The translations under genes and the position numbers were made by a program. From Pseudomonadota bacterium (GTDB lineage: Bacteria > Pseudomonadota > Gammaproteobacteria > Steroidobacterales > Woeseiaceae), in NCBI GenBank assembly GCA_027618995.1, contig JAQCGO010000009.1, forward strand, positions 1 through 62,093: a stretch of 62,093 nucleotides of DNA, given 5' to 3'. Positions 32,708 to 54,789 of this stretch are shown here, one piece after another (positions within the stretch are counted from its first letter, which is position 1; each line of letters opens with the position of its first letter). Below the pieces are notes generated by a model. That model had not been told where the DNA came from and ran no database searches. It was given only the letters and a program-made list of their open reading frames with translations.

Positions 32708-33556
32708 ATGCGGGAATTCTCACTATCGCGTCGCGCAATGTTGGGCAGTACCGCTGCACTGGGCCTTATGGGAATGGCGGCACCATGCATCGCGCCGGCA
32801 TCGGCCCCTACGACCAAGCGCGTTCCCGGATTTCAACTGTATACGGTCCGGGCATCGATGGCGACGGATGTGCCAGGTACGCTGCGTGCGATCGCCGGCA
32901 TCGGTTATCACGAAGTCGAATTTGCCGGCTACGGCGATCACTCGGCCCGGCAGATACGGGGCCTGCTTGACGAACTCGGTCTGCAATCGCCCAGCTCGCA
33001 TATGAATGCGCAACTGCTACGCAGTGATCCGCTGCCGCTGATCGAAACGGCAATCGAAATCGGCCACGATTACGTGACGATCGCCTACTTGAACCCTGAA
33101 GACCGGCAAACCATCGACGATTACAAGGGTTGGGCGGACACGCTCAACCGCGTCGGTGAGTTGTGCCGCGAAAACGGATTGCGGGTGGCCTATCACAATC
33201 ACGACTTTGAATTCACGTCACTTGGTGGTCAGGTGCCCTTTGATATTCTGCTCGACGAAACGGATCCTGCGCTGGTTGACTTCGAACTGGACTTCTTCTG
33301 GGTGCGTAAAGCCGGGCAGGACATCGTTCAGGTCCTGAGCAGGGCGCCCAACCGCTTTGCGATGGCACACATTAAAGACATGAACGAACAAGGCGAAATG
33401 GCGGACGTCGGTACCGGTGTCATCGACTTCCGGGATATTCTCGGTAACGAAGCCGCGTCCGGACTCCGTCACTTTTTTGTGGAACACGACCAGCCATCAG
33501 ATCCGTTCAAGTCCGCGGCAATCAGTCGCCCCGCGCTGGCGTCGATTCTAGACTAA
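32708..33556 (+). CDS. Tat-exported sugar phosphate isomerase/epimerase-like TIM-barrel protein
   Basis: 282 residues. N-terminal twin-arginine signal (LSRRAMLGSTAALGLMGMAA, about residues 6-25) then an AP-endonuclease-2/xylose-isomerase-like barrel (PF01261 type): FQLYTVRASM, YHEVEFAGYG, LRVAYHNHDFEF, VDFELDFFWVRKAG and FFVEHDQ supply the metal-site Glu/His/Asp residues. Related secreted enzymes act on keto-sugars in 3-keto-glycoside pathways, here an inference from neighbours. Converges with the Gfo/Idh/MocA gene with a 4-bp overlap. Confidence 0.88.
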   Translation: MREFSLSRRAMLGSTAALGLMGMAAPCIAPASAPTTKRVPGFQLYTVRASMATDVPGTLRAIAGIGYHEVEFAGYGDHSARQIRGLLDELGLQSPSSHMNAQLLRSDPLPLIETAIEIGHDYVTIAYLNPEDRQTIDDYKGWADTLNRVGELCRENGLRVAYHNHDFEFTSLGGQVPFDILLDETDPALVDFELDFFWVRKAGQDIVQVLSRAPNRFAMAHIKDMNEQGEMADVGTGVIDFRDILGNEAASGLRHFFVEHDQPSDPFKSAAISRPALASILD

Positions 33557-34710
33557 AGCGCTACCCAGCCTGCGCCGGATTCACTTGAACGCACGGCGGC
33601 CTCGACAAAGGCAACCCCTTTGAGGCCGTCCTCGCCGGCAGGAAACACGAGCTCAGCATCGACGTTGCTGCCATCACGATGGGCCCGGATCGCGGCCGCG
33701 ATCTCGGTATAAATGCTCGCAAATGCCTCGAGGTAACCCTCGGGGTGGCCAGCGGGAATTCGACTCATGCGACATGCATCCGCACCCGCAGCTGCGCCGC
33801 CGCGAGTGATTCTCTGTGCCGAACCGCCGAGTGTCGTGAACCAGAGTTCATTGGGTGCTTCCTGCCGCCAGCTGAGGCCGCCTTTGTCGCCATAGACACG
33901 CAGTGACAGGCCATTCTCGTTACCGACCGCAACCTGGCTGGCCCACAACATGCCTTTTGCGCCGCCTTTAAAGCGCAACAACAGCGCCGCGTTGTCGTCG
34001 AGGCGACGACCCTCGACGAAACGCGAGAGGTCCGCGCACAACGATTCGAGAGTCAGGCCTGTAACGAACGTCGCAAGTTGATAAGCGTGGGTTCCGATAT
34101 CGCCTATGCAGCCACCCGCCCCCGATTTCGCGGGATCGGTGCGCCAGGCGGCCTGCTTCTGTCCTGTCTGCTCGATTGCATCGGCGAGCCAGTCCTGTGC
34201 GTATTCCGCCTGCACCAGCCGGATGTTACCGAGTTCGCCACTGGCAACCATTGCCCTGGCCTGGCGAATCATCGGGTATCCCGAGTAGTTGTAGGTCACG
34301 GCGAGAATGCGGTTGGCGCGCGCTGCAGCATCGATCAGTTCCCGCGACTGCTCGCTTGTTACGGTCAGCGGCTTGTCGCAGATGACATGAATGCCCGCGT
34401 CGAGAAATGCCTTTGCGATAGGGTGATGCAGGTGATTCGGAGTGACGACGGCGACGACTTCGATGCCGTCCTCACGGGCTGCCTCGGCCGCAGCCATGTC
34501 AGCAAAGTTTGCGTACGAGCGCTCATCATCGATACCAATTTCGCGTGCCGAGGCCGCTGCGCGTTGCGGGTCGGACGACAGCGCCCCGGCGACGAGCACG
34601 TATTCATCGTCGATCCGGGCCGCAATACGATGCACGTTGCCGATCAATGCTCCCTGTCCGCCGCCGACCATGCCGAGTCGAATCCGCCGGCCGCTCAATT
34701 TGCTACTCAT
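33553..34710 (-). CDS. Gfo/Idh/MocA-family NAD(P)-dependent oxidoreductase
   Basis: 385 residues. Rossmann N-domain with RLGMVGGGQGALIGNVHR, VVTPNHLHHPIAKAFLDAG and the catalytic Lys motif HVICDKPLTV. C-domain with GAGGCIGDIGTHAYQLATF carrying the active-site Asp and His. The ATGA overlap with the downstream-barrel partner (34707-34710) shows translation coupling. A paralogue with the same landmarks (HRxAA, AGAxSSD, GHPxGYLEAFA) is at 57228. Probable role: reduction/oxidation of a keto-sugar. Confidence 0.93.
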   Translation of the reverse strand: MSSKLSGRRIRLGMVGGGQGALIGNVHRIAARIDDEYVLVAGALSSDPQRAAASAREIGIDDERSYANFADMAAAEAAREDGIEVVAVVTPNHLHHPIAKAFLDAGIHVICDKPLTVTSEQSRELIDAAARANRILAVTYNYSGYPMIRQARAMVASGELGNIRLVQAEYAQDWLADAIEQTGQKQAAWRTDPAKSGAGGCIGDIGTHAYQLATFVTGLTLESLCADLSRFVEGRRLDDNAALLLRFKGGAKGMLWASQVAVGNENGLSLRVYGDKGGLSWRQEAPNELWFTTLGGSAQRITRGGAAAGADACRMSRIPAGHPEGYLEAFASIYTEIAAAIRAHRDGSNVDAELVFPAGEDGLKGVAFVEAAVRSSESGAGWVAL

Positions 34711-35774
34711 TTGGGGTTCCGGCCAAGACCCAGCACCGCACGATTTGTATCGGCATCAATGTCCGTGGCGGCGAAATCGTCAAACGCGCGTTCGGTCACG
34801 CGAATTATGTGATCGGCAATGAACTTCGCCCCCTCGCGTGCCCCATCCTCGGGGTGTTTGAGGCAGCACTCCCATTCGAGTACGGCCCAGCCAGTGAAGT
34901 TGTATTGCGCGAATCTGGAGAAGATGCCGCGAAAATCGATCTGGCCATCGCCCAGAGAGCGAAAGCGACCGGCGCGATCGGCCCACGGCTGGTAGCCACC
35001 GTAAACGCCCTTGCGTCCGGTCGGATTCAGCTCCGCATCCTTGACATGGAACATTTTGATGCGCTCATGATAGATGTCGATGTGTTGCAGGTAGTCGAGG
35101 GCCTGCAGTACGTAATGACTCGGGTCATAGAGCATGTTGCAGCGGGGATGATTGTCGACTCGCTCCAGGAACATCTCAAAGGTGATGCCATCGTGCAGGT
35201 CCTCGCCCGGATGAATCTCGTAACACAGGTTGACCCCGGCCTCGTCAAAAGTATCGAGAATCGGCCGCCAGCGATTCGCCAGTTCGTCGAACGCCTCTTC
35301 GACGAGCCCCGCCGGCCGCGGCGGCCAGGGATACACGTAAGGCCACGCCAGCGCCCCCGAGAACGTTACATGCTCGGTTAGCCCCAGGTTTGCGGACGCT
35401 TTTGCAGCATGTAACAACTGCTCGACGGCCCATCGTTGCCGGGCATTGGGATTGCCCCGTACTTCGGGCGCTGCAAAGCCGTCGAACAACGCGTCGTAGG
35501 CCGGGTGAACAGCAACGAGTTGTCCCTGCAAATGTGTCGACAACTCAGTGACCTGTATGCCGTGCGTATCCAGAATCGCACGCAAATCGTCACAGTAGGA
35601 TTTGCTTTCCGCCGCCTGTGCGAGATCGATGAACCGGAGGTCCCAACTCGGAATCTGCACGCCAACGAAACCAAGCGAGGCTGCCCACTCGGCAATGCTG
35701 TCAAGATTATTGAACGGTGCCTCGTCCCCAGCGAACTGGGCAAGAAAAATCGCGGGACCTTTTATAGTTTTCAT
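34707..35774 (-). CDS. Sugar phosphate isomerase/epimerase-family TIM-barrel protein
   Basis: 355 residues, no signal peptide. Xylose-isomerase-like barrel with FVGVQIPSWDLRF, VNLCYEIHPGEDLHDG (Glu and His metal ligands), YDPSHYVLQALDYLQ, MFHVKDAEL and WAVLEWECC (final Glu). First gene of a two-gene operon with the Gfo/Idh/MocA oxidoreductase. The exact sugar is unknown; homologues often occur in inositol, keto-glucose or C-glycoside catabolism. Confidence 0.9.
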   Translation of the reverse strand: MKTIKGPAIFLAQFAGDEAPFNNLDSIAEWAASLGFVGVQIPSWDLRFIDLAQAAESKSYCDDLRAILDTHGIQVTELSTHLQGQLVAVHPAYDALFDGFAAPEVRGNPNARQRWAVEQLLHAAKASANLGLTEHVTFSGALAWPYVYPWPPRPAGLVEEAFDELANRWRPILDTFDEAGVNLCYEIHPGEDLHDGITFEMFLERVDNHPRCNMLYDPSHYVLQALDYLQHIDIYHERIKMFHVKDAELNPTGRKGVYGGYQPWADRAGRFRSLGDGQIDFRGIFSRFAQYNFTGWAVLEWECCLKHPEDGAREGAKFIADHIIRVTERAFDDFAATDIDADTNRAVLGLGRNPK

Positions 35775-35857
35775 TAGATCTGCCGGCTGTTGTCAACTGC
35801 CCAAGAATGAACGTGCCCGCCGCATATTTCAAGGACGGGAATCTGGCCGCATCGATC

Positions 35858-36814
35858 TCAACTACCAGGCGTGATGACGATGTTGCGGAACTCGATAGGC
35901 CCATGATCGCCCTGCAACATCAGCGGACCGGCGCTTTCTTCATCGCTGTCGAGCGCACCGCCCGTGATCCCCGGAATCTCGTGCTGCGAGATCACTTCTA
36001 TCCCGTTGAGTTTGATGGAGATTCGCCGGCCAATGAGCTCGATGTGCATCGACTGCCAGTCGTTCGGTCTCGCGGCCGCGTTCGTTCGTGGTGCGATGAA
36101 GCCATACAACCCGCCGATGCGCAGCGAGTCGACGGCCATGCCCCGGTCGTCCTGGATCTGGACTTCGTAGCGGCCCCTGAGATAGACGCCGCTGTTGCTC
36201 CCCGGCGGATAACGAAACTCGAGCTGCAACCTGAAATCATCGAAGCGCGCCTCGGTAACCAGATCCACGCAAGGTGGCGTCGCGCTCAGGATCCCGCTCG
36301 CGACGGTCCAGCAACCAGCATGATTCGGGGACCTCGGGCGCCAGCCCGACAACCCGGCACCGATCAAATCGACCGGCTCGTCCCACTTGCCCACCTCCGT
36401 ATGTGCCAGCGACGGCGCCCGGACCCCGGTCCACGTAAAGCTTTCGCAATCGCCGATGCGGGTCTGTCCGGACAGGCGATCACCCTCGAGCATACCGTCG
36501 AAGATGAGCTCGCCTTCGCCCCATTGCTCCCACTGCAGGGGTATGCGTACCTGCAGGCGATCGTCAGCAAAACTCACGGTTGTTGCGTGCCGCTTGCTGC
36601 CGGATTGCCCGACAAAATCCGCCATCAACTCGGTTTCCTTACGCAGGCGGATCTCCACCCATGACGGATATTCCCCGCCCGGTCCCTGCACGGTCAGGTC
36701 CCAGCGGCCCAGTATGGGATCCGCAAACCCGCGTGGCGGCGACTCTTCGGCACTTGCTGTGGCCGCGAGCAGAAGCGCAACGGCCGGGAATACGCTGCTG
36801 ACTTTGAGTTTCAT
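35858..36814 (-). CDS. Secreted DUF1080 (3-keto-glycoside hydrolase-like) protein with extra N-terminal domain
   Basis: 318 residues; signal peptide VFPAVALLLAATASA (about residues 8-22). Residues 28-130 form a beta-rich module (RWDLTVQGPGGEYPSWVEIR). Residues 145-318 are the concanavalin-like DUF1080 fold: LQLEFRYPPGSNSGVYLRGR, YEVQIQDDRG, DWQSMHIELIGRRISIKLNG, GPLMLQGDHGPIEFRNI. DUF1080 proteins have been shown to cleave 3-keto-glycosides. It faces the GMC dehydrogenase cluster divergently (about 90 bp). Confidence 0.87.
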   Translation of the reverse strand: MKLKVSSVFPAVALLLAATASAEESPPRGFADPILGRWDLTVQGPGGEYPSWVEIRLRKETELMADFVGQSGSKRHATTVSFADDRLQVRIPLQWEQWGEGELIFDGMLEGDRLSGQTRIGDCESFTWTGVRAPSLAHTEVGKWDEPVDLIGAGLSGWRPRSPNHAGCWTVASGILSATPPCVDLVTEARFDDFRLQLEFRYPPGSNSGVYLRGRYEVQIQDDRGMAVDSLRIGGLYGFIAPRTNAAARPNDWQSMHIELIGRRISIKLNGIEVISQHEIPGITGGALDSDEESAGPLMLQGDHGPIEFRNIVITPGS

Positions 36815-36907
36815 AACCCGATGCTACAATACCCGCGCATGGCTTGCGATACACTGACAACCCGATAAGCAAATTCACTAACCAAGGGCCACCCTGGAAT
36901 ATCGAGC

Positions 36908-38593
36908 ATGGCAACAGAAACCTACGACGCAATTGTAGTCGGCTCCGGCATCTCGGGAGGCTGGGCCGCGAAGGAACTGACGGAAAAGGGACTGAATGTG
37001 CTGCTGCTCGAGCGCGGCAAGAATGTTGAACACATCAAGGACTACGTCAACGCGCGCAAGGCGCCATGGGAGTACCCGCACCGCGGCGGCCGGACCTACG
37101 CAATGGAGGAAGCGTATCCGGTCCTGAAGCGGGATTACCCCCTCAACGAGAAAAATCTCGACTGGTGGGCCTCGGACCGCGATTCACCGTACACCGAAGT
37201 CAAGCGCTTCGACTGGTATCGCGGCTACCAGGTGGGCGGGCGATCATTGATCTGGGGCCGTGTCAGTTTACGGCTCAGCGATCTCGACTTCGAAGGGAAT
37301 GCGAAAGACGGTGTCGCGGTGGACTGGCCGATACGCTACGCGGATATCGCACCGTGGTATTCGCACGTCGAGCGCCATGCCGGCATTTCGGGCTCGGTCG
37401 AGCACATGCCGCAGTACCCGGACGGCGAGTTCATGCCGCCGATTCCTTTGAACTGCGCGGAGGAGCTGGTCGCGAAGCGCGTGCGCGGCGAGTTCGACGG
37501 CAAGCGGCGCATTGTGAACGCGCGGGTCGCCAACATCACTCAAGCATTGCCCGGACGAGCGCCTTGTCAATACCGGGACGCTTGCTGGCTGGGGTGCCCT
37601 CACGGCGCCTATTTCAGCACACAGTCTTCGACATTACCGGCGGCGATGGCGACCAATCGCCTGACGCTAAAGCCCTGGTCCATTGTGACTGAGCTCATCT
37701 ACGATAAGGACAAGCGGCGAGCGTCCGGTGTGCGGGTGATCGACGCGGTCACCGAGACGACTACCGAATACAACGCGAAGATTGTGTTTCTTTGCGCGTC
37801 GGCCCTCAACTCGACCTGGCTCCTGATGCGCTCAGCGAAGGATGTGTGGCCGGAAGGTCTCGGTTCCAGTTCCGGTCAGCTGGGCCGCAATCTCATGGAC
37901 CACCATTTCCGTGTCGGGGCTTCGGGCCGTATCGACGATCCGGCGGTCAATGACAAGTATTACTACGGCCGCCGACCTTGCGGCTTTTACATTCCGCGTT
38001 ATCGAAACGTGGAACGACAGGATCGCGACTACCTGCGCGGTTTCGGCTACCAGGGCAGCGCAAGTCGTGACGGCTGGTCGCGTGCCGTGCGGGAGCTGGG
38101 TGTCGGCGGGGAATTCAAGGACGAGATGGCGAGGCCGGGCGACTGGCAAATCGGCGCGACCGCATTCGGCGAGATGCTGCCGAACCCGGACAACCGCATA
38201 ACCATCGACGAGACCCGCACGGACAAATGGCATCTGCCGGTCCTCGCAATCGACTGCGCGATCGGGGAAAACGAACACCGGATGCGCGTCGACATGATGA
38301 ACGACATGGCCGAGACGCTCAACGCAGCCGGCGTGAAGGACGTCAGCGCGTTCGAACGCGACTACGCGCCGGGCATGGGCATCCACGAAATGGGCACGGC
38401 ACGTATGGGACGCGATCCGAAGACGTCGGTTTTGAATGGCTGGAACCAGGTTTGGGATGCACAGAATGTGTTCGTCACGGACGGCGCGTGCATGACTTCC
38501 TCCGGTTGCCAAAATCCGTCCTTGACCTACATGGCACTGACCGCGCGTGCCGCTGACTATGCCGTCAACGAACTGAAGCGCAGGAATCTTTAG
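36908..38593 (+). CDS. GMC-family FAD-dependent oxidoreductase (sugar dehydrogenase large subunit-like)
   Basis: 561 residues. FAD-binding VGSGISGGWAAKEL (about 11-24) and LLLERG; QVGGRSLIWGRVSLRL; active-site region GIHEMGTARMG and TDGACMTSSGCQNPSLTYMA with the catalytic His/Asn pair zone. Its operon partner encodes a gluconate-2-dehydrogenase-subunit-3-like protein, the arrangement of membrane-linked sugar 3-dehydrogenases and gluconate dehydrogenase. Probable role: C3 oxidation of a glycoside or sugar, with electrons passed to a cytochrome not found in the window. Confidence 0.92.
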   Translation: MATETYDAIVVGSGISGGWAAKELTEKGLNVLLLERGKNVEHIKDYVNARKAPWEYPHRGGRTYAMEEAYPVLKRDYPLNEKNLDWWASDRDSPYTEVKRFDWYRGYQVGGRSLIWGRVSLRLSDLDFEGNAKDGVAVDWPIRYADIAPWYSHVERHAGISGSVEHMPQYPDGEFMPPIPLNCAEELVAKRVRGEFDGKRRIVNARVANITQALPGRAPCQYRDACWLGCPHGAYFSTQSSTLPAAMATNRLTLKPWSIVTELIYDKDKRRASGVRVIDAVTETTTEYNAKIVFLCASALNSTWLLMRSAKDVWPEGLGSSSGQLGRNLMDHHFRVGASGRIDDPAVNDKYYYGRRPCGFYIPRYRNVERQDRDYLRGFGYQGSASRDGWSRAVRELGVGGEFKDEMARPGDWQIGATAFGEMLPNPDNRITIDETRTDKWHLPVLAIDCAIGENEHRMRVDMMNDMAETLNAAGVKDVSAFERDYAPGMGIHEMGTARMGRDPKTSVLNGWNQVWDAQNVFVTDGACMTSSGCQNPSLTYMALTARAADYAVNELKRRNL

Positions 38594-38601
38594 GCTTTTC
38601 T

Positions 38602-39228
38602 ATGACGAACAAAAATTCACAGCCTCTGCTCTGGACACGCCGGGAAGCGATCCTGAGAGCGAGTGCGGCTCTCGGTGGTGCGACACTTATCGGTCAGGCA
38701 CTGATGTTGGCCGGTTGCGAGCGCGATCCGGCCGAAGCACCGGCGGCAAAGGATCCTCGAGACGAGTTGTTTAGCGATGCGGACGTGGCGCTGCTGGACG
38801 AGATCGCCGAGACCATATTGCCGGAAACCGACACACCCGGCGCTAAAGCCGCTGGTGTCGGTCCGTTTATCGCCCTGATGGTCACCGACACTTATTCTCC
38901 GCAGGATCAGGGCGTGTTCAAGGAGGGGTTGGCGACAATCGACCGTGAATGCCAGCAGACCTACGGCAAGAACTTCGTCGAATTGTCGTCAGCAGAGCGG
39001 CTGGGCATTGCCGAACGCCTCGACCGTGAGCAGTTTGACGCAGGCGACGCGGTGCATTATTTCCGCATGTTGAAAGAATTGACGGTACTGGGGTTCTTCA
39101 CTTCGGAGACCGCGTACAACGAGATACTCGAGTACGTTGAGTCGCCGGGTCGCTACGACGGCTGCAGGGAACTTGGCCCGGATGTGCGCATGCTCGCCGG
39201 CCATGGCTCGGGCCCATTCAACACGTGA
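38602..39228 (+). CDS. Gluconate 2-dehydrogenase subunit 3-family protein
   Basis: 208 residues. N-terminal Tat-like signal (WTRREAILRASAALGGATLI, about 11-30) ending in a lipobox-like LAGC. The rest is the PF13618 helical domain with LLDEIAETILPETDTPGAKA and LGFFTSETAYNEILEYV. Small subunit that accompanies and exports the GMC flavoprotein encoded 8 bp upstream. Its stop overlaps the next DUF1080 start as GTGA. Confidence 0.92.
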   Translation: MTNKNSQPLLWTRREAILRASAALGGATLIGQALMLAGCERDPAEAPAAKDPRDELFSDADVALLDEIAETILPETDTPGAKAAGVGPFIALMVTDTYSPQDQGVFKEGLATIDRECQQTYGKNFVELSSAERLGIAERLDREQFDAGDAVHYFRMLKELTVLGFFTSETAYNEILEYVESPGRYDGCRELGPDVRMLAGHGSGPFNT

Positions 39229-39995
39229 TACGCGTATTGGCATTGCTGCCGCTGCTGGCTGGCTGCGCGGAGCCTGGTGAAAAGTGGATCCCGCTTTTCG
39301 ACGGTGAGAGTCTCGATGGATGGACGCCGAAGATCAGCAGGTATCCGGCGGGAGTGAACTTCGCTGATACGTTTCGCGTTGAAGACGGTGCAATCACTGT
39401 CGCTTATGACGGCTACGATTCCTTCGACGCGAGATACGGACACCTGTTCTTTGAAACACCGTATACCCATTATCGATTGCGACTCGAGTACCGCTTCGTT
39501 GGCGAACAGGTACCCGGCGTCGAGGGGTGGGCATGGCGCAACAGCGGCGTGATGTTTCACGCCCAGGCGCCGGAATCGATGCCGGACGGACAGGATTTTC
39601 CAATCTCGATCGAGTTCCAGTTCCTGGGCGGCCGGGAGGACGGCGGGCCGCGGCCGACGGCCTCGATGTGTTCACCCGGTACGGAAGTAGACATCAGCGG
39701 CACGCGAGCCACTGACCATTGCATATCGGCGGCAGCGCCGACCATTGTGGGCGATGACTGGGTGCGGGTTGAATTGCTCGTTGAAGGTGCCGACCGCGCC
39801 GTGCATTACGTCGAGGGCGAGCCAGTGATCGAGTACGGCAACCTGTCCGTCGGCGGGGGCGTCGTCAACGGTTACGATCCGGCCATGAAGACCGACGGAA
39901 AACCGCTCTCTGGCGGCCGCATCGCACTACAGAGTGAAAGCCACCCGGTCCAGTTCCGGCGCATTGAACTACTGGATCTGCAGAACAGATCCTGA
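39225..39995 (+). CDS. DUF1080 (3-keto-glycoside hydrolase-like) lipoprotein
   Basis: 256 residues from a GTG start overlapping the upstream stop by 4 nt. Lipobox LLAGC at residues 11-15, then one DUF1080 fold: WIPLFDGESLDGWTPKI, HYRLRLEYRFVGEQVPG, NSGVMFHAQ, IEFQFLGG, DDWVRVELLVEG, and the closing GRIALQSESHPVQFRRIEL. Being translationally coupled to the GMC dehydrogenase subunits supports an oxidise-then-cleave pathway for a glycoside. Confidence 0.92.
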   Translation: MIRVLALLPLLAGCAEPGEKWIPLFDGESLDGWTPKISRYPAGVNFADTFRVEDGAITVAYDGYDSFDARYGHLFFETPYTHYRLRLEYRFVGEQVPGVEGWAWRNSGVMFHAQAPESMPDGQDFPISIEFQFLGGREDGGPRPTASMCSPGTEVDISGTRATDHCISAAAPTIVGDDWVRVELLVEGADRAVHYVEGEPVIEYGNLSVGGGVVNGYDPAMKTDGKPLSGGRIALQSESHPVQFRRIELLDLQNRS

Positions 39996-40054: not shown

Positions 40055-40498
40055 ATGCTCAGGAAACATTGGTTTACGCCTACTCTCGGATTGGCAATTT
40101 TCGCATCAGGCGTGATATCCGGGAGTTTCATTCAGTTCAACGGTGTTGCCGCGGCACAGTCACCCGATCGAGTGTTTGAGCTTCGGACCTACACAACACA
40201 TCCAGGTCGCCTCGACGCGCTACATGCGCGGTTCGAGGATCATACGATTGCGCTGTTTGAACGGCACGGAATGACGAACATCGCATATTTCGTTCCGCAA
40301 GATGCCCCGCTCGCCGAAAACACGCTTATCTATGTCCTGGCGCACGACAGTCGTGAGGCAGCCAAAGCCAGTTGGGCCGCATTCCAAGCAGATCCGGATT
40401 GGCAAAAGGCTCGCAAAGCATCGGAAAGTGACGGGCCGATTGTAGATAAAGTGGAAAACGTCTTCATGGATGCGACGGACTATTCGATGATGAAGTAA
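40055..40498 (+). CDS. Exported NIPSNAP-family protein
   Basis: 147 residues: signal peptide or anchor (LGLAIFASGVISGSFIQFNG, about 12-31), then a NIPSNAP/dimeric alpha-beta barrel domain starting VFELRTYTTHPGRLDALHAR and YVLAHDSREAAKASWAAFQADP. Ribosome site AGAGGAA precedes the ATG. NIPSNAP proteins commonly accompany secreted sugar-oxidation clusters; the function is unknown. Confidence 0.9.
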   Translation: MLRKHWFTPTLGLAIFASGVISGSFIQFNGVAAAQSPDRVFELRTYTTHPGRLDALHARFEDHTIALFERHGMTNIAYFVPQDAPLAENTLIYVLAHDSREAAKASWAAFQADPDWQKARKASESDGPIVDKVENVFMDATDYSMMK

Positions 40499-43359: not shown

Positions 43360-44703
43360 ATGAACAGAACTCAGCGCGTTATAGCATTGATACTTACCTG
43401 CTCTTTCTTAACCGCCGGCGCGCAAGCCGACGAGTTTGTTATTCGTGATTTTGAGAAACAACAACTGACCACTGTCTATTGGTCGGAAGGCGCGAGTTTC
43501 GGCGACTTTAATCAGGATGGTCATCAGGATGTCGTCAGTGGACCGCACATGTGGCTGGGGCCCGACTTCAAGCACCGTTACGAATACTATCCGCCCGTGG
43601 CGCCGACCAAGCGGCTGCCATATGATTTTGGGTATTACTCGAACGACAATTTCTTTTCATTCGTTTACGACATCAATGGGGACGGCTGGCCAGACGTCCT
43701 GACGGCGGGACTTCCCAATACCCCTGCTTACTGGTACCAGAACCCGGGCAAGTCCTTCAGTGGTCCGGGTCCGGAGCGACCGGAGCACTGGGAGCGCTAC
43801 TTCGTCACAGACGCTGTTAAGAACGAAGCACCTGATTTCAAAGACCTTACCGGCGATGGGGTGCCAGAACTGTTGATGGCTTACAGCAAACATTACGGCT
43901 ATGTCTCGCCGAACCCTGTAGCGCCGACGCTTCCCTGGATCTTTCACCCGATTTCGACCCATGAAGAGGAGATTCATCACTACACCCACGGCATGGGAAT
44001 TGGGGATATCGACGGCGACGGACGCAAAGACTACATAACCGGGGATGGATGGATGCGACAACCCGCCTCACTGCAAGACGGTCAAGATTGGGAGTATCAC
44101 CCGTTCGCATTCGTTAATCGGCAGACCAACCGCGTGTTCTGTTGTTTCACCGGCGGAGGCAATATGTATGCCTATGACGTGAATGGCGACGGGCTCAACG
44201 ATGTTATTACCAGTAAGGACGCACACGGTTGGGGTCTGAGCTGGTTTGAACAAATCCGTACCGGCAAAAAGATCACTTTCAAGGAGCATATTATTCTGAG
44301 CCATCAGGAGGAAAATACTGACAACCCTTATGGGGTTCAATTCTCCCAGCTCCACGCTGTTGAGCTTGTTGACATCGATGGCGATGGCTTAATGGACATT
44401 TTGACCGGCAAGACCTACCGGGCTCACGACTTCGGCGACCCCGGGTCCCGACAGGACCCGGTGGTCTATTATTTCCGGCTCACGCGCGAGGATGGCCAGG
44501 TTGAATATATTCCTCATCAGATCGATGATCAGGCGGGCATCGGACGGCAACTGGTAAGCGGAGACCTCAACGGAGATGGGCTGGTCGATTTTGTAGTCGG
44601 CAACAAAAATGGGGCCTTTGCCTTTACCCAAAAGGTTAGAAACGTCGACCAGGAGGAATGGGAAAAGGCTCAGCCGGTCCGGATCGAGAATTTTAGAGAC
44701 TAA
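43360..44703 (+). CDS. Secreted FG-GAP/VCBS-repeat beta-propeller protein, copy 1
   Basis: 447 residues; signal peptide VIALILTCSFLTAGAQA (about 7-23). Repeated FG-GAP blades with calcium-type loops: SFGDFNQDGHQDVVSGP, DINGDGWPDVLTAG, DLTGDGVPELLMAY, DIDGDGRKDYITGD, DVNGDGLNDVITSK, DIDGDGLMDILTGK and DLNGDGLVDFVVGN, i.e. seven blades. No catalytic signature is recognised. Tandem with a near-identical copy 38 bp downstream; upstream of the xylose regulator. Possibly a periplasmic or surface carbohydrate-binding or lyase-like propeller. Confidence 0.88.
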   Translation: MNRTQRVIALILTCSFLTAGAQADEFVIRDFEKQQLTTVYWSEGASFGDFNQDGHQDVVSGPHMWLGPDFKHRYEYYPPVAPTKRLPYDFGYYSNDNFFSFVYDINGDGWPDVLTAGLPNTPAYWYQNPGKSFSGPGPERPEHWERYFVTDAVKNEAPDFKDLTGDGVPELLMAYSKHYGYVSPNPVAPTLPWIFHPISTHEEEIHHYTHGMGIGDIDGDGRKDYITGDGWMRQPASLQDGQDWEYHPFAFVNRQTNRVFCCFTGGGNMYAYDVNGDGLNDVITSKDAHGWGLSWFEQIRTGKKITFKEHIILSHQEENTDNPYGVQFSQLHAVELVDIDGDGLMDILTGKTYRAHDFGDPGSRQDPVVYYFRLTREDGQVEYIPHQIDDQAGIGRQLVSGDLNGDGLVDFVVGNKNGAFAFTQKVRNVDQEEWEKAQPVRIENFRD

Positions 44704-44741
44704 TAAAGCCAGTACTATCCGACTGGAGATGAGGCACTAAG

Positions 44742-46088
44742 ATGAACAGAACTCAGCGCGTTATAGCATTGATACTTACCTGCTCTTTCTTAACCGCCGG
44801 CGCTCAAGCCGACGATCTTGTTATTCGCGAATTTGAAAAACAGCAACTGACCCCCGTCTATTGGTCGGAAGGCGCCAGTTTCGGCGACTTTAATAAGGAT
44901 GGTTATGAGGATGTCGTCAGTGGACCGCACATGTGGCTCGGGCCCGACTTCAAGCACCGTTACGAATACTATCCGCCCGTGGCGCCGACCAAGCGGCTGC
45001 CATATGACCGCGGGTATTACTCGAACGACAATTTCTTTTCATTCGTTTACGACATCAATGGAGACGGCTGGCTGGACGTCCTGACAGTGGGGCTTCCCAA
45101 TACCCCTGCTTACTGGTACCAGAACCCGGGCAAATCTTTCAGCGGTCCAGGTCCGGAGCGACCGGAGCACTGGGAGCGTTACTTCGTCACAAACGCTGTT
45201 AAGAATGAAGCACCAACATTCGAAGACCTTACCGGCGATGGGGTACCAGAACTGTTGATGGCTTACAGCAAACATTACGGCTATGTCTCACCGAACCCTG
45301 TAGCGCCGACGCTTCCCTGGATCTTTCACCCGATATCGACCCATGAAGAGGACATTCATCACTACACCCATGGTATGGGAGTTGGGGATGTCGACGGCGA
45401 TGGACGCGCTGACTTTCTGGAAGGGAACGGATGGATACAACAACCCTCGTCCCTGAAAGGCGATTCTGATTGGACTTATCATCGCTTTCCCTTCATCGAT
45501 CGGTCGGGTTCCGAGCAGTGGGATAGCTTGAAGGGTGGAGGCGATATGTATGCCTATGACGTGAATGGCGACGGGCTCAACGATGTTATTACCAGTAAGG
45601 ACGCACACGGTTGGGGTCTGAGCTGGTTTGAACAAATCCGCACCGGCAAAAAGATCACCTTCAAGGAACATATTATTCTGAGCAAGCAGGAGGAAAATAC
45701 TGACAACCCTTATGGGGTTCAATTCTCCCAGCTCCACGCAGTAGAACTTGCTGACATCGATGGTGATGGGCTGAAAGATATTGTGACCGGCAAGACCTAC
45801 CGGGCTCACGACTTCGCCGACCCCGGGGCACGACAGCCCGCGGTGATCTATTATTTCCGGCTCACGCGCCAGGATGGCGAGGTCGAGTACATTCCTCATC
45901 AAATCGATGACGACTCGGGCATCGGACGGCAACTGGTAAGCGGAGACCTCAACGGAGATGGGCTGCTCGATGTGGTGGTCGGCAATAAGAATGGGGCCTT
46001 TGTCTTTATCCAAAAGGTTCGTCAGGTCGGCCAGGAGGAATGGGAAAAGGCTCAGCCGGTCCGCAGCGAGGGTTTTGCACAACGGTAA
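44742..46088 (+). CDS. Secreted FG-GAP/VCBS-repeat beta-propeller protein, copy 2
   Basis: 448 residues, same signal peptide and same seven DxDGDG-type blades as copy 1. The two differ by scattered substitutions except for residues about 227-266, where they share little: copy 1 has GWMRQPASLQDGQDWEYHPF and FCCFTGGGNMYAYD, copy 2 has GWIQQPSSLKGDSDWTYHRF and WDSLKGGGDMYAYD. The 20 bp before each ATG (GATGAGG..CTAAG) are also duplicated, so the unit carried its ribosome site. Ends at a hairpin before the convergent lacI-type gene. Confidence 0.88.
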   Translation: MNRTQRVIALILTCSFLTAGAQADDLVIREFEKQQLTPVYWSEGASFGDFNKDGYEDVVSGPHMWLGPDFKHRYEYYPPVAPTKRLPYDRGYYSNDNFFSFVYDINGDGWLDVLTVGLPNTPAYWYQNPGKSFSGPGPERPEHWERYFVTNAVKNEAPTFEDLTGDGVPELLMAYSKHYGYVSPNPVAPTLPWIFHPISTHEEDIHHYTHGMGVGDVDGDGRADFLEGNGWIQQPSSLKGDSDWTYHRFPFIDRSGSEQWDSLKGGGDMYAYDVNGDGLNDVITSKDAHGWGLSWFEQIRTGKKITFKEHIILSKQEENTDNPYGVQFSQLHAVELADIDGDGLKDIVTGKTYRAHDFADPGARQPAVIYYFRLTRQDGEVEYIPHQIDDDSGIGRQLVSGDLNGDGLLDVVVGNKNGAFVFIQKVRQVGQEEWEKAQPVRSEGFAQR

Positions 46089-46130: not shown

Positions 46131-47156
46131 CTAGCTGGCTGGTTTGGCAACAGACCGCCTGATCACCAGTTTGTGAGGCACGATTTCGGGTGAGCCAGCT
46201 GCGCCATTGCCCGTTTCGATCTGGCGACATAGCCGGTACATGACCCGCTCACCGATTTCTTCGGCAGGCTGACTGATCGTCGTAAGCGGCGGATCGGTGA
46301 CTTCGGCGTAGCGAATGTCGTCGAACCCAACGATCGAAATGTCACGCGGGACTTGCAGTCCGGCAGACTTGATCTCGTGAAGGCAACCAATGGCCATTTC
46401 GTCGTTTGCACAAAAAATCGCGGTCGGCTTATTGCCATGATTCATCAAATTGCGAGTGGCCTTTCGCGCCCCCGCAATAGTGAGGTCACCGTCAACAACC
46501 CAGCCATCTTCTATCGACAATTCGGCATGTCTCATTGCAGCGCGGTAGCCGAACTCCCTGTCCTTTGTCAGCAGTGATGAACTTTGTCCGCACACCATAG
46601 CGATACGCTTATGTCCCTGTGAAATCAGGTAATTGGTTGCCTCTTTCGCTGCGGCTATATTGTCAATGTGCACACTCGGAAAGTCGGCCAATTCAGGCGA
46701 CACGGTTTCGCAGCCAATAACAATTGGCAGCCTGCGGTTGTTCTTCGCCGATAGAACTTCGTTACCAAAGGGTGACGTGCTGGCCACCAAAATGATGCCG
46801 TCTGTCTGATTCGAAACAAGCATCGCGCCAATCTCATCGGCGGTCATCTTGTTGAACTCTGTTTCCTCAATCAGGACGGAGTAGCCTTTTGCCCGTGCCG
46901 CGACGTGAATGCCGCTCATCACGGCGGTAAAAAACGGGTCGCCTATAGACGGCAGCACCACCATAACGATATTCGTGCGACCACGTCGAAAGCTCTGCGC
47001 CAGCGTATTTGGCGAGTAGCCTGTCTGACAAATTGCATCCTGAACTTTAAGCCGCGTCTTCTCGGTGACCTTTTCAGGATTGTTGATGCATCTCGAGACG
47101 GTGGCAATCGACACGTCGGCAAGTCGCGCAACTTCCTTAATGGATACGTCTGACAT
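46131..47156 (-). CDS. LacI-family transcriptional regulator, probable xylose-regulon repressor
   Basis: 341 residues. LacI helix-turn-helix at residues 5-25 (SIKEVARLADVSIATVSRCI) and hinge NTLAQSFRRGRTNIV. Periplasmic-binding-protein-like effector domain with VLPSIGDPFF, TDGIILVAST, AIFCANDEMAIGCL and ISIVGFDDIRYAEV. Divergent from the aldose epimerase, and the site at 47258-47269 lies in the shared promoter region. Similar sites before xylB and the FG-GAP genes suggest the regulon. The effector is likely xylose or a xylose derivative (inferred). Confidence 0.92.
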   Translation of the reverse strand: MSDVSIKEVARLADVSIATVSRCINNPEKVTEKTRLKVQDAICQTGYSPNTLAQSFRRGRTNIVMVVLPSIGDPFFTAVMSGIHVAARAKGYSVLIEETEFNKMTADEIGAMLVSNQTDGIILVASTSPFGNEVLSAKNNRRLPIVIGCETVSPELADFPSVHIDNIAAAKEATNYLISQGHKRIAMVCGQSSSLLTKDREFGYRAAMRHAELSIEDGWVVDGDLTIAGARKATRNLMNHGNKPTAIFCANDEMAIGCLHEIKSAGLQVPRDISIVGFDDIRYAEVTDPPLTTISQPAEEIGERVMYRLCRQIETGNGAAGSPEIVPHKLVIRRSVAKPAS

Positions 47157-47257
47157 GTCCTGCGCCTCAGAATCTTCTTGTTACGGAACAGTATCGACTG
47201 ACGCCCTGGTCAAAGGTAGCCTACGGGACGAAGTAAGTGGATTTGGCCAGTAGCAGC

Positions 47258-47269
47258 GTATACGTTTAC
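47258..47269. promoter_or_regulatory. Putative LacI-family operator in the regulator/epimerase promoter
   Basis: GTATACGTTTAC, a one-mismatch palindrome with the central CG typical of LacI-family operators, lies 28 bp before the epimerase ATG and 102 bp before the divergent regulator gene. Confidence 0.55.
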
Positions 47270-47296
47270 AATTGATTGATCAATCGACCTTCGCAA

Positions 47297-48316
47297 ATGG
47301 AAAATCCAGTGCAGTCAAGTGATTCAACAAAATCGATCGAAGCAATAACGCTGAGATCACTCGCGGGTATGGAGGTGACGCTATTGAATTTTGGCGCGAC
47401 CATTCAAGCCATACGTGTGCCAACCGAATCTGGTGTTGTTGATGCCGTGCTTGGCTACGCGAATCTCCGCGATTATTTGCGTGACAAGTTCTACATGGGT
47501 GCGACGGTAGGGCGTTTCGCGAATCGCATAGCTGCTGCGCGTTTTCGGATTGACGATAATGCCTTTTCAGTAGATCCGAATGAGACGCAGACCGGAAACT
47601 GTCTGCACGGTGGCAGGGAAGGCTTTCATCAACGCTTTTGGCAAATGCACGCGCCGGAAAACGAAGCCGCGGTCCAATACTCCTATGTGTCTCCTGACGG
47701 CGAAAGCGGTTTTCCGGGAAAACTGGAAGTCACCGTTAAATATCAAATAGTTACTGACTTTTCACTGGTCATTGATTTCGAGGCGACAACAGATTCAGAC
47801 ACGGTCGTGAATCTCGTCAACCACGCCTATTTTAATCTCGACAAGCGTCAAAGTTCGATCGATACACATGACATCCAAATCGAGGCATACCAATACACGC
47901 CTGTTGATAGTGCCAAGATTCCTAGCGGTGAAATTCGTGATGTAGAGGCCACAAGATTTGACCTTCGTCGCCGCACAGCGATGCGTACAACGAGCTCAGA
48001 GGATAGTCAACGCCGACAGTACGACCATAATTTCGTTTTGAAAAACGGCGACGGAATGCTGCGCAGGGTTGCCACGCTATCGTCTCCGCAGAGCGGCCTG
48101 AAGATGCACCTGCATACAACTCAAGTTGGACTACAACTCTACACCGGCGAATATCTCACCGATCCTTTTCGACCGCGTGCCGGACTGTGTCTGGAAGCCC
48201 AGGGTTTCCCCGATGCGCCAAATCAGCCGGCTTTCCCATCCGCGCGATTGGCACCTGGAGACGTCTATCAACACCGCACAATCTACGAATTTGTGCCCGG
48301 CAAGCCTTATTCTTAG
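47297..48316 (+). CDS. Aldose 1-epimerase
   Basis: 339 residues from the ATG at 47297 (a TTG at 47276 would overlap the operator region). Interconverts alpha and beta sugar anomers before phosphorylation or isomerisation. GalM landmarks: GATVGRFANRIAAARF, NCLHGGREGFHQRFW (catalytic His), VNLVNHAYFNL (second His), YDHNFVL and the catalytic Glu in LCLEAQGFPDAPN. Placed before xylB/xylA, so it probably serves as xylose mutarotase. Confidence 0.92.
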   Translation: MENPVQSSDSTKSIEAITLRSLAGMEVTLLNFGATIQAIRVPTESGVVDAVLGYANLRDYLRDKFYMGATVGRFANRIAAARFRIDDNAFSVDPNETQTGNCLHGGREGFHQRFWQMHAPENEAAVQYSYVSPDGESGFPGKLEVTVKYQIVTDFSLVIDFEATTDSDTVVNLVNHAYFNLDKRQSSIDTHDIQIEAYQYTPVDSAKIPSGEIRDVEATRFDLRRRTAMRTTSSEDSQRRQYDHNFVLKNGDGMLRRVATLSSPQSGLKMHLHTTQVGLQLYTGEYLTDPFRPRAGLCLEAQGFPDAPNQPAFPSARLAPGDVYQHRTIYEFVPGKPYS

Positions 48317-48375
48317 CCGTTTTCACGTGTTGTAGACCACGGCATTTGTAAGTTCGCCGCATCCCAGTCTAAAAT

Positions 48376-48387
48376 GTAAACGTTTTC
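48376..48387. promoter_or_regulatory. Putative LacI-family operator before xylB
   Basis: GTAAACGTTTTC, a near-palindrome around a central CG, 32 bp upstream of the xylB GTG. It matches the epimerase site at 10 of 12 positions and the FG-GAP site at 11 of 12. Confidence 0.55.
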
Positions 48388-48418
48388 TTTCTACTGATCT
48401 CGGGATGGTCCAAGACCT

Positions 48419-49903: not shown

Positions 49904-49930
49904 ACAATTATCCAACCATGAGGCAATAAC

Positions 49931-51280
49931 ATGAGTCGTACAGTGTTTACGGGGGGCAAGCGCTACTTTCCAGGTGTCGGTCAAATCAAACACGAAGGGC
50001 CTGATTCCGACAACCCGTTGGCATTCAAGACCTATGACCCGGAACGTGTCGTTGCCGGCAAAACAATGGAGGAACATTTGCGCTTTGCCGTTTGCTATTG
50101 GCACTCATTCTGCGCAGAAGGCGGTGATCCGTTCGGGCCGGGCACGCGCGTACACCCGTGGAAAGTCGCCGGTGATCGACTGGCGAATGCCACCCAGAAA
50201 TTGGACGCCGCATTCGAGTTTTTTACCAAACTCAATGTGCCGTACTGGTGTTTTCATGATTTCGATATGGCCTGGGAAGGCAATAGCGTTGCTGAATCGG
50301 AAAAAAACCTGCAGACGGTTGTCGATCTCGCGAAGGAACGACAGAAAGCGACCGGCATGAAGTTGCTTTGGGGAACAGCAAACACTTTTTCCAATCCTCG
50401 CTATATGAACGGTGCGGCTACCAACCCGAACTTCGAAGTTCTGGCCTATTCTGCATCGCAGGTCAAGGCAGCTATCGACGCGACGATAGAGCTGGGCGGT
50501 GAAAACTATGTGTTCTGGGGCGGTCGCGAAGGATATGCGTGCCTGCAGAATACCGATACCAAACGCGAGCTGGAGCACTTTGCGCTGTTTCTGGAGAAAG
50601 CCAGGGACTACGGTCGTGCAAACGGTTTTGCAGGCACATTTCTGATTGAACCGAAACCGATGGAGCCGATGAAGCACCAGTACGACTTTGATGCACAAAC
50701 GGTCATCGGATTTCTTCGTCACCATGGATTGGCTGGAGACTTTAAGCTGAACATCGAAGCCAATCACGCAACGTTGGCGGGCCACACGTTCGCACACGAC
50801 CTGCGCATGGCTACGGACGCAGGGCTGCTCGGGTCTGTTGACGCGAATCGTGGTGACCCGCAGAACGGTTGGGACACCGACCAGTTTCCCAGTGATTTGT
50901 ATGATTGCGTGCACGGCATGATGGTTGTGCTAGAGGCCGGTGGTATTGGCAACGGTGGTTTCAATTTCGATGCCAAGGTAAGACGAGAATCGACAGATCC
51001 AAATGACCTGTTCATTGCCCATATCGGTGGCATGGACTCGTTCGCGCGCGGGCTTGTTATCGCCGATCGTGTTCTCAGTGACTCGCGGTCCGCAATATTG
51101 CGGTTCGGCCGTTACACCAGTTTTGACTCCGGTAACGGCAAGCGTTTCGAAGATGGTAAATTGGACTTCCTAGCATTGCGTGACATTGCTGCTGCGAATG
51201 GGGAGCCACAACAGATCAGCGGCAAACAGGAATTGGTTGAAAATATTATCAACGATTACATATTCAGGGGCGACTGCTAA
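49931..51280 (+). CDS. xylA: Xylose isomerase
   Basis: Converts D-xylose to D-xylulose in the cytoplasm. 449 residues, the long (class II) form. [13 protein letters not shown] carries the catalytic His, [16 protein letters not shown] is the signature, [17 protein letters not shown] provides metal-site residues, [18 protein letters not shown] and [17 protein letters not shown] the second metal site. Downstream of xylB in one operon. Confidence 0.97.
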
Positions 51281-51319
51281 TCACGGCAGGCCGAAAGGGT
51301 TATCATAACTTCCTTATCG

Positions 51320-53473: not shown

Positions 53474-53477
53474 ACCT

Positions 53478-53496
53478 CCTTATTCGCGAAATAAGG
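53478..53496. other. Intercistronic hairpin after the PQQ dehydrogenase
   Basis: CCTTATT (53478-53484) pairs with AATAAGG (53490-53496), loop CGCGA; no T run follows. It may stabilise or process the mRNA rather than terminate it. Confidence 0.45.
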
Positions 53497-53523
53497 TATG
53501 CAGGGCAACCAGGGACAGGAATA

Positions 53524-54789
53524 ATGTTCAATGCGACCTCGGCGCGACTCGGCGCAATGATGTTTCTCCAGTTTTTTGTATGGGGTGCGTGGTACGTCAC
53601 GATAGGCAACTATATGGCGGCGCATGGCATGGTCGACCTTGCACACTGGCCGTACACCGTAAATCCCATCGCTGCCATCATCGCGCCGATTTTCCTGGGC
53701 TTGGTTGCGGATCGCTTTTTTGCGGTCGAAAGAGTGCTCGGTACCCTGCATATCCTCGGTGGACTTATCATGTTCGCGGTGCCGCACGCGACGCAAACAC
53801 CCGGTTTGTTCGTTCTGCTGCTGCTGTTTTACAACATGTGCTACATGCCAACTTTGGGCCTGGCGAACTCGCTGGTGTTTCACAACATCGAAAACCAGGA
53901 GCGCCAGTTCCCGATGATCCGCGTATTCGGCACGATCGGCTGGATCGTCGCCGGACTTTTCATCGGCTTTGTCCTCGGACTATTCAGCGGTGAAGAGTTG
54001 CCCGACCGGACGCCGTTGCCGCTCTATACTACGGCGATTGCAAGTCTGGCGCTTGGCGCTTACAGCTTCACACTGCCACACACTCCGCCACCTGCTGCCG
54101 GCCAGCCGGTGTCTGTTCAGAGTATCGTGGGCGCCGACGCTTTGCGTTTGCTTGGCAGCCGATCTTTCTACATCTTCATCGGGTGTTCTTTCCTGATATG
54201 TATCCCGCTCGCTGCTTACTTTAGCTTCGCACCGATTTTCGTCGCCAATAGCATTTACGATCAGGGGGTAAGCAATTCGCTCGTCGATGTGCTGCCGAAT
54301 CCTTCCTCATTGATGAGCATTGGGCAGATGTCGGAGATAGTATTCATGTTGCTGATGCCGCTATTGTTCATGCGTTTGGGTGTGAAGTGGATGTTGGGCA
54401 TCGGTATGGGCGCATGGATCTTGCGTTATGCGCTGTTCGCTTTCGGAGCACCCGATGCGGTGTTCTGGATGGTCGCCGGAGGGATATTGCTGCATGGGAT
54501 CTGTTATGACTTCTTTTTCGTCACCGGTCACATCTACGTCGATAAGAAATCGACGCCAGCCGTGCGTGGCCAGGCTCAGGGCCTTCTCGTATTTGTGACC
54601 TACGGACTTGGTATGCTTGTCGGCGCGCAGATTGCCGGTGCGCTCTTCAACAGGTTCCTGGGTGACGCGAGCTTGTTGACGCTGGAGCGTTGGCAAGACT
54701 TCTGGTTGGTGCCGGCGGGGTTCGCGATGCTTGTCCTCGTGTTGTTTATGATGACTTTCAAGGACGACGTCGAGCGCGCTTCGGACTAG
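53524..54789 (+). CDS. MFS transporter, nucleoside:H+ symporter (NupG/XapB-like) family
   Basis: 421 residues, 12 predicted membrane helices. N-terminus ATSARLGAMMFLQFFVWGAW, the loop GLVADRFFAVERVLG after helix 2, and PMIRVFGTIGWIVAGLFIG are typical of the NHS family. Many members near carbohydrate clusters move sugars rather than nucleosides, and following xylBA it probably imports a pentose or pentoside. Ribosome site GGACAGGAAT precedes the ATG. Confidence 0.9.
   Translation: MFNATSARLGAMMFLQFFVWGAWYVTIGNYMAAHGMVDLAHWPYTVNPIAAIIAPIFLGLVADRFFAVERVLGTLHILGGLIMFAVPHATQTPGLFVLLLLFYNMCYMPTLGLANSLVFHNIENQERQFPMIRVFGTIGWIVAGLFIGFVLGLFSGEELPDRTPLPLYTTAIASLALGAYSFTLPHTPPPAAGQPVSVQSIVGADALRLLGSRSFYIFIGCSFLICIPLAAYFSFAPIFVANSIYDQGVSNSLVDVLPNPSSLMSIGQMSEIVFMLLMPLLFMRLGVKWMLGIGMGAWILRYALFAFGAPDAVFWMVAGGILLHGICYDFFFVTGHIYVDKKSTPAVRGQAQGLLVFVTYGLGMLVGAQIAGALFNRFLGDASLLTLERWQDFWLVPAGFAMLVLVLFMMTFKDDVERASD

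What the first reader, a model, noticed from the sequence alone, without database searches (positions are those of the whole stretch)
32708..39995. Putative 3-keto-glycoside degradation cluster with both exported and cytoplasmic arms
Seen: a GMC flavodehydrogenase plus its Tat-type small subunit, two DUF1080 proteins (one lipoprotein coupled by GTGA to the dehydrogenase, one secreted with an extra N-terminal domain), a Tat-exported and a cytoplasmic xylose-isomerase-fold protein, and a Gfo/Idh/MocA oxidoreductase. Known: DUF1080 proteins hydrolyse 3-keto-glycosides, and GMC/Gfo enzymes make or reduce 3-keto sugars. Inference: oxidation at C3, cleavage of the keto-glycoside outside the cytoplasm, isomerisation, then reduction inside. 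The divided layout and double DUF1080 are unusual enough to be a distinct variant.
Basis: partly seen in the sequence, partly recalled or inferred. Interest (0 to 1): 0.75.

Follow-up and report, generated by a model that had tools for sequence, protein, structure and literature searches.

The report
Sugar-cutting cluster with divergent lyases
This is one bacterium's version of a known gene set that cuts sugars off other molecules by oxidising them first; the gene set itself is common, but both of its DUF1080 proteins lack the histidine of the studied enzyme, which places them in two unstudied branches of that enzyme family.

Summary
The pathway idea is largely right; two enzyme roles and the claim of rarity are not. 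The cytoplasmic TIM-barrel protein is 70.6% identical to the solved 2-hydroxy-3-keto-glucal hydratase. The Tat-exported one keeps all eight metal/catalytic residues of the A. tumefaciens O-glycoside beta-eliminase. Likely route: C3 oxidation and beta-elimination outside the cytoplasm, import of the unsaturated keto-sugar, then hydration and reduction inside; no isomerisation. Content is not unusual: 16 of 34 Pseudomonadota loci found by the GMC protein hold all six families, and of 18 loci fetched because they hold a Glu-class DUF1080, all have a GMC gene and 17 a second DUF1080. What is new is narrower: neither window DUF1080 has the histidine (H275) of the B. theta eliminase/hydratase. One has Glu there (clade of 14 rows, support 100), the other Asp plus an undescribed N-terminal domain (clade of 4, support 99). 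The genome's two other PF06439 copies lack it too. Best read as a new variant of a known pathway with two uncharacterised DUF1080 classes.

The parts
32708..33556 (+). OGEx: Tat-exported PF01261 TIM-barrel protein, 282 aa; O-glycoside beta-eliminase (OGE) homologue
   Evidence: Pfam; best PDB match 8bvk (A. tumefaciens OGE) E 1.6e-26; 33% identity; all 8 AtOGE metal/catalytic residues kept; twin-Arg signal
33553..34710 (-). GFO: cytoplasmic Gfo/Idh/MocA oxidoreductase, 385 aa; predicted 3-keto-glucose reductase
   Evidence: Pfam; PDB 3v5n 509 bits; a GFO gene found with HYD in 85 of 88 loci
34707..35774 (-). HYD: cytoplasmic PF01261 TIM-barrel protein, 355 aa; 2-hydroxy-3-keto-glucal hydratase homologue
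   Evidence: PDB 8ro4 E 6.4e-176; 70.6% identity over 350 positions
35858..36814 (-). D1080N: Sec-exported PF06439 protein, 318 aa, with an undescribed N-terminal domain of about 125 aa; Asp class (LQGDHG)
36815..36907 (.). 93-base divergent intergenic region between the two operons
36908..38593 (+). GMC flavodehydrogenase, 561 aa, without signal peptide; predicted glycoside 3-dehydrogenase (LacA/GlycDH-like); C220-x5-C226-x3-C230
38602..39228 (+). SUB3: PF13618 small subunit with twin-Arg signal and lipobox
39225..39995 (+). D1080L: PF06439 lipoprotein, 256 aa; Glu class (LQSESHP)
40055..40498 (+). NIPSNAP-family protein; link to the pathway not tested
53524..54789 (+). PF03825 nucleoside/H+ symporter-like permease; its homologues sit beside HYD/GFO in relatives; candidate importer, outside the cluster here

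Best explanation
A glycoside-utilisation cluster of the oxidation, elimination, hydration and reduction type. The GMC/PF13618 dehydrogenase, exported by the Tat signal of the small subunit, oxidises the sugar at C3. The Tat-exported OGE homologue (beta-linkages) and the two exported DUF1080 proteins (predicted alpha- or differently linked 3-keto-glycosides) cut the glycosidic bond by beta-elimination, giving 2-hydroxy-3-keto-glucal. This is taken up, perhaps by a PF03825 permease, hydrated by HYD and reduced to the free sugar by GFO in the cytoplasm. The two DUF1080 proteins belong to Glu and Asp classes that lack the His needed for hydration in the B. theta enzyme, so I predict lyases with little or no hydratase activity that rely on HYD. 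Shown here: gene content, homology, residues, signal sequences, co-occurrence. Inferred: reactions, substrates, importer, division of labour.
For: HYD is 70.6% identical to PDB 8ro4, named 2-hydroxy-3-keto-glucal hydratase. OGEx keeps E39 H66 H132 H134 E161 D163 H189 E233 of AtOGE (residues taken from PMC10628242, passages). The same enzyme set (GMC with Tat partner, OGE, HYD, Gfo) is published for A. tumefaciens and Rhizobium. GMC+SUB3+DUF1080+TIM+HYD+GFO together in 16 of 34 Pseudomonadota loci found by GMC alone and on plasmids of Gammaproteobacteria, Alphaproteobacteria and Bacteroidota. OGE-homologue rows in GMC loci with SUB3 carry a signal by script in 35 of 36, the 36th by eye; without SUB3 in 0 of 4 rows. 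PF03825 permease in 13 of 22 HYD-bearing GMC loci. DUF1080 core residues N, E, Q, W, Q kept in both window proteins. The B. theta DUF1080 enzyme eliminates 3-keto-alpha-glucosides, and its H275N variant does so without hydration (PMC13273386, passages).
Against: No activity tested. OGEx is only 33% identical to AtOGE. No lacB-like small cytochrome c next to the cluster; in the window the only plausible CxxCH is in a 717-aa PQQ protein at 51320, and own-genome matches to the Xanthomonas cytochrome lie there and on two other contigs. The permease is 13.5 kb away. His-class DUF1080 also occurs in clusters that have HYD, so loss of His does not follow from having HYD. In the Caulobacteraceae loci a His-class copy stands near the Glu-class one, so the Glu class need not be the cutting enzyme there. 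The export/SUB3 match rests on a single contrast on the tree.
Confidence: 0.75

Rival explanations
1. One reading: DUF1080 proteins hydrolyse the 3-keto-glycoside and the TIM-barrel proteins isomerise the sugar before reduction.
For: Pfam name 3keto-disac_hyd; Price et al. propose a periplasmic 3'-ketolactose hydrolase; elimination plus hydration equals net hydrolysis.
Against: HYD and OGEx match a hydratase and an eliminase, the latter with full active site; the His needed for hydration in the B. theta enzyme is missing in both DUF1080 proteins.
Confidence: 0.12
2. OGEx does the cutting, and the two non-canonical DUF1080 proteins are sugar-binding or otherwise non-catalytic accessory proteins.
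For: Both lack His at the H275 column; the Glu class also lacks Asp135 (8v31-fragment numbering) in 14 of 14 rows (13 Gly, 1 Arg); below the DUF1080 structures the D1080L model matches lectin-type domains; a His-class copy accompanies the Glu class in Caulobacteraceae loci.
Against: The column holds H, E or D in 51 of 52 rows; the Glu class is one side of a branch with no other residue in it, and 18 of 18 further loci found by D1080L similarity also show Glu; E130, Q132, Q239 and N101 are kept.
Confidence: 0.25
3. The cluster acts on something other than glucosides, such as galactosides, inositols or sulfated algal sugars, with the same chemistry.
For: The TIM and GFO proteins also hit inositol-pathway models far below their cut-offs; substrate cannot be read from sequence.
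Against: The 70.6% match to a hydratase acting on the glucose-derived glycal.
Confidence: 0.2

Closest known systems
A. tumefaciens GlycDH/TAT-OGE-HYD-Gfo pathway (Bitter et al. 2023, PMC10628242, sections 7 and 14 and passages read; Kastner et al. 2024, not held, only its citation and passages of later papers seen)
   Same: GMC dehydrogenase with Tat partner, OGE-type TIM-barrel lyase with the same metal residues, hydratase at 70.6% identity, Gfo reductase
   Different: Two added DUF1080 proteins; two divergent operons plus a separate OGE gene; OGEx only 33% identical to AtOGE
Caulobacter LacABC plus DUF1080 (Price et al. 2022, PMC9007349, section 10 read)
   Different: No lacB-like cytochrome or transporter inside the window cluster; that LacA is GMC and LacC PF13618 is recalled; classes of the two Caulobacter DUF1080 proteins not checked here
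B. thetaiotaomicron BT2157 3-keto-glycoside eliminase/hydratase (PDB 3osd, and by near-identical sequence 8rr2, 9fbe, 8tda)
   Same: Same family and fold, same near-invariant N, E, Q, W, Q positions
   Different: H275 replaced by Glu or Asp in the window proteins; the B. theta cluster uses BT2158, a periplasmic glycoside 3-dehydrogenase, of the Gfo type (the window's GFO weakly hits the BT_2158 model; cluster make-up otherwise recalled)

Membership tests
A. tumefaciens-type oxidation/elimination/hydration/reduction pathway | C3 dehydrogenase (GMC) with Tat partner | tested here: met
   GMC and PF13618 with twin-Arg signal; C3 activity itself not tested
A. tumefaciens-type oxidation/elimination/hydration/reduction pathway | OGE lyase with E39 H66 H132 H134 E161 D163 H189 E233 | tested here: met
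   8 of 8 in OGEx
A. tumefaciens-type oxidation/elimination/hydration/reduction pathway | 2-hydroxy-3-keto-glucal hydratase | tested here: met
   by sequence: 70.6% identity to 8ro4
A. tumefaciens-type oxidation/elimination/hydration/reduction pathway | Gfo-type 3-keto-glucose reductase | tested here: inconclusive
   Family and 509-bit match to 3v5n, named only 'Oxidoreductase'
A. tumefaciens-type oxidation/elimination/hydration/reduction pathway | enzyme activities | not testable with these tools
   none
LacABC-DUF1080 (Caulobacter type) | LacA (GMC), LacC (PF13618) and exported DUF1080 together | tested here: met
   the family names of LacA and LacC are recalled
LacABC-DUF1080 (Caulobacter type) | LacB cytochrome c in the cluster | tested here: not met
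   No small exported CxxCH ORF in the window near the cluster; own-genome matches to a cluster cytochrome lie at 52739 (PQQ protein) and on contigs C59 and C12
LacABC-DUF1080 (Caulobacter type) | lactose growth phenotype | not testable with these tools
   none
PF06439 3-keto-glycoside eliminase/hydratase | family match and fold | tested here: met
   Pfam; models match solved members, (low-confidence models, mean pLDDT 60.7 and 64.4)
PF06439 3-keto-glycoside eliminase/hydratase | His275 (QDHG) | tested here: not met
   Asp in D1080N, Glu in D1080L
PF06439 3-keto-glycoside eliminase/hydratase | metal (Ca) site | not tested
   A calcium site is recalled; no residue list was at hand

The most novel reading that the evidence does not exclude
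PF06439 holds two further catalytic classes, Glu (window D1080L) and Asp with an N-terminal domain (window D1080N), that cleave 3-keto-glycosides by elimination with an acid residue in place of the histidine. They do not hydrate the product, and so depend on the cytoplasmic hydratase; with the exported OGE they give one periplasm several stereo- or linkage-specific lyases that feed one intermediate.
Probability: 0.35. Interest if true: 0.6.

Novelty: new variant of a known kind. Interest (0 to 1): 0.42.

Why it matters
The GMC branch of the 3-keto pathway turns up in many more loci than the few studied cases, and one alignment column splits DUF1080 proteins, at present named alike 3-keto-disaccharide hydrolase in Pfam, into at least three classes. 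If the Glu and Asp classes are lyases without hydratase activity, they would be useful for making 3-keto-glycals and would explain why a separate hydratase is kept.

Tried and rejected
Rejected: that the double DUF1080 or the exported/cytoplasmic division is unusual. Rejected: that an exported OGE is new against A. tumefaciens. The 10 other rows of the 8bvk clade (56.5-62.2% identity to the 8bvk stretch) carry signals by script, and so by eye do the Halomonas plasmid homologue (61.7%) and the Rhizobium pTi6.2 fragment (71.8% over 131 residues), which are not in the tree. The paper says that all its enzymes were designed with an N-terminal Strep-tag, so the lack of a signal in the 8bvk chain may come from the construct (inference). 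Rejected as statistical proof: exported OGE with SUB3; only one independent contrast exists.

Led nowhere: Pfam scans of the D1080N N-domain (0 families for the domain alone at E up to 10; in 3 homologues only PF06439 and one sub-threshold hit outside the domain); a viral-contig scan with D1080L (3 pattern matches, no relative); AlphaFold models that show the family fold but not the N-domain or the place of the shifted histidines. Kastner et al. 2024 and Arellano et al. 2010 are not held, so what they say is recalled or seen through citing papers.

Limits of the counts: the own locus is left out of the 34. In one search TIM rows without the HHH pattern (one listed exception, L113) were left out; rows without HH or HE at sites 132/134. 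L053 and L209 are the same record, counted as two of the four rows without SUB3; several rows come from close relatives. The signal-peptide calls are a home-made script, not SignalP; L203 was missed by it and L069 probably wrongly called. In the tree the export labels were a hand-set list of nine cytosolic rows, all other labelled rows counted as exported; L021 is an odd long branch there.
Full report
What is there. The window lies in a genome of 2.54 Mb in 76 contigs. On the minus strand D1080N, HYD and GFO follow one another (83 bases, then an ATGA overlap). On the plus strand GMC, SUB3 and D1080L follow one another (8 bases, then the GTGA overlap, which joins SUB3 to D1080L). The two units diverge from 93 bases. 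OGEx is a separate plus-strand gene that converges on GFO.

The two TIM-barrel proteins look like a lyase and a hydratase, not isomerases. HYD matches PDB 8ro4, 2-hydroxy-3-keto-glucal hydratase, at E 6.4e-176 and 70.6% identity over 350 positions. OGEx's best solved relative is 8bvk, the A. tumefaciens O-glycoside eliminase (33% identity). The metal ligands, the catalytic His and the alternative-site residues given in PMC10628242 (passages) are all kept, 8 of 8. In a wider set 44 of 57 rows, 8bvk included, carry all eight. PMC10628242 (sections 7 and 14 read) describes the same set in A. tumefaciens: GlycDH, eliminase, hydratase, Gfo reductase; the Tat partner used there is from Rhizobium. 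The whole words transport, export, signal peptide and cytosol do not occur in its text, nor does any word beginning with periplasm.

Compartments. Among OGE-homologue rows in loci with a GMC gene, those with SUB3 carry a signal in 35 of 36 by script; the 36th (L203) begins with what looks by eye like a Sec signal. Those without SUB3 have none in 4 of 4 rows, two of which are one record. So in these loci oxidation and cleavage sit on the same side of the membrane. The tree shows only one independent contrast, so this is a pattern, not a test. The 10 other rows of the 8bvk clade all have signals by script, so an exported eliminase is the usual state there and probably also that of A. tumefaciens.

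How common the set is. A search with the window's GMC in 398 Pseudomonadota genomes found it in 27 including the own one. Around the 34 other places SUB3 is present in 32, DUF1080 in 21, HYD in 22, GFO in 22, a TIM-barrel in 24, and all six families in 16. By comparison, among 79 loci fetched by HYD alone (L018-L096), DUF1080 is present in 5 and GMC in 8, while a GFO gene is found with HYD in 85 of 88 loci (L018-L105). Named examples with all six families are plasmids of Xanthomonas sacchari, Palleronia, Paracoccus, Hymenobacter, Sphingomonas and Novosphingobium; the Ketogulonicigenium plasmid cluster shows no DUF1080. A PF03825 permease lies in 13 of the 22 HYD-bearing GMC loci, in 10 of them within 80 bases of HYD or GFO; the window has one at 53524, 13.5 kb off. 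Congeners hold the halves apart: G040 has D1080N-GMC-SUB3 (L211) and OGE-HYD-GFO (L101), G039 has GMC-SUB3-D1080L (L130), and G003 and G010 have HYD-GFO-SUB3-GMC-OGE with no DUF1080 in the fetched stretch. HYD itself was found in only 11 of 99 genomes of the relatives search, the own one included.

DUF1080 residues. The PDB titles 8rr2 and 9fbe are 3-keto-glycoside eliminase/hydratase; 8tda and 8v31 are 3-keto-2-hydroxy-glucal-hydratases BT2 and AL2. In the alignments, 9fbe differs from 8rr2 in having Asn for His in QDHG. A later paper uses the H275N variant of the B. theta lyase, deficient in hydration (PMC13273386, passages). I take the two to be the same change; this is an inference from the match. 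In 52 aligned DUF1080 domains (51 rows and 8v31) that column is His in 33, Glu in 14, Asp in 4 and other in 1. The Glu and the Asp rows each form one side of a branch (SH-aLRT 100 and 99, short search; the column itself was part of the tree data). Window D1080L is in the Glu class and D1080N in the Asp class. The genome's other two PF06439 copies have neither motif nor the canonical one. N101, E130, Q132, W172 and Q239 (numbers of the 8v31 fragment used as query) are kept in 51 or 52 of 52 rows.

Are these classes linked to the pathway? For the Asp class, each of the three full-length homologues found by D1080N similarity (G040, G728, Gemmatirosa plasmid 2) lies near a GMC gene: adjacent in G040 and G728, and about 2-3 kb away in Gemmatirosa, and all share the N-domain. 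The class looks rare: 1 of 397 other phylum genomes, 1 of 98 other relatives, 0 of 368 other class genomes, 1 plasmid record covering at least 80% of the query; these samples may overlap. For the Glu class, 19 of 61 genomes of one alphaproteobacterial genus hold a D1080L homologue. G755 of the same family coincides with a Phenylobacterium record in contig length and OGE sequence, so the family is Caulobacteraceae by inference. In the 18 fetched besides G795, a Glu-class gene (LQSEG) and a GMC gene occur in 18 of 18, with HYD, GFO, TIM and the permease in 18 of 18 and a second DUF1080 in 17 (L247's contig ends first; in 16 of the 17 the script printed a His motif). G795's own locus (L189) has the same families. 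Against this, of 9 stretches fetched by D1080L similarity without regard to GMC (and four of the five regions), a GMC gene lay in 4 (L123, L130, L131, L133), and only 3 of 98 other relatives had a D1080L match.

Reading. Price et al. [quoted passage not shown] That gene list fits the Caulobacteraceae loci seen here, so the same kinds of enzyme are probably already known to matter in vivo, but I could not fetch those genes to see their class. I therefore hold the pathway as likely (0.75), the roles of the two DUF1080 proteins as open, and the cluster as a new variant of a known kind, not a new system. The AlphaFold models support only the family fold (mean pLDDT 60.7 and 64.4) and were built from relatives, so they are not independent of the sequence match.

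In print. Searches of the open library for DUF1080 with 3-keto, lacABC, 3-keto-glycoside and related terms listed no paper whose title or abstract start describes Glu or Asp classes. Most subscription papers are not in that library, and PMC9765024 (section 9 and passages) says that three putative active-site positions were mapped on 240 family members without naming the residues in what I read, so variation at this column may have been seen before.

Noticed in passing
window 43360-46088: Two FG-GAP-repeat-type proteins (447 and 448 aa) in tandem with the same first 24 residues and a signal-like start, apparently a recent duplication (only the first was scanned against Pfam).
   Followed up: no
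window 46131-60475: A second sugar locus: LacI regulator, aldose epimerase, FGGY kinase, weak PF01261 match, PQQ dehydrogenase with cytochrome domain, PF03825 symporter, PIG-L, a second Gfo/Idh/MocA gene next to a ThuA (trehalose utilisation) gene. A Gfo+ThuA pair recalls the rhizobial ThuAB 3-keto-trehalose system (recalled).
   Followed up: partly
window 40000: G+C falls from about 60% to 49% just after the cluster ends.
   Followed up: no
L021, L022, L027, L034-L036, L038-L041, L043, L048: SAR11 (Pelagibacteraceae) genomes carry HYD+GFO at 73-75% identity to the window's HYD, with no GMC or DUF1080 found in the fetched stretch.
   Followed up: no
L219:8893-9399: A Ti plasmid (pTi6.2, Rhizobium rhododendri) carries a shortened OGE gene with a twin-Arg signal beside a sugar phosphate isomerase/epimerase, a Gfo/Idh/MocA gene and an ABC transporter.
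   Followed up: no
L127:8899-11541: A haloarchaeal plasmid (Natronococcus) encodes a Glu-class DUF1080 domain in an 881-aa frame annotated as PQQ-dependent sugar dehydrogenase.
   Followed up: no
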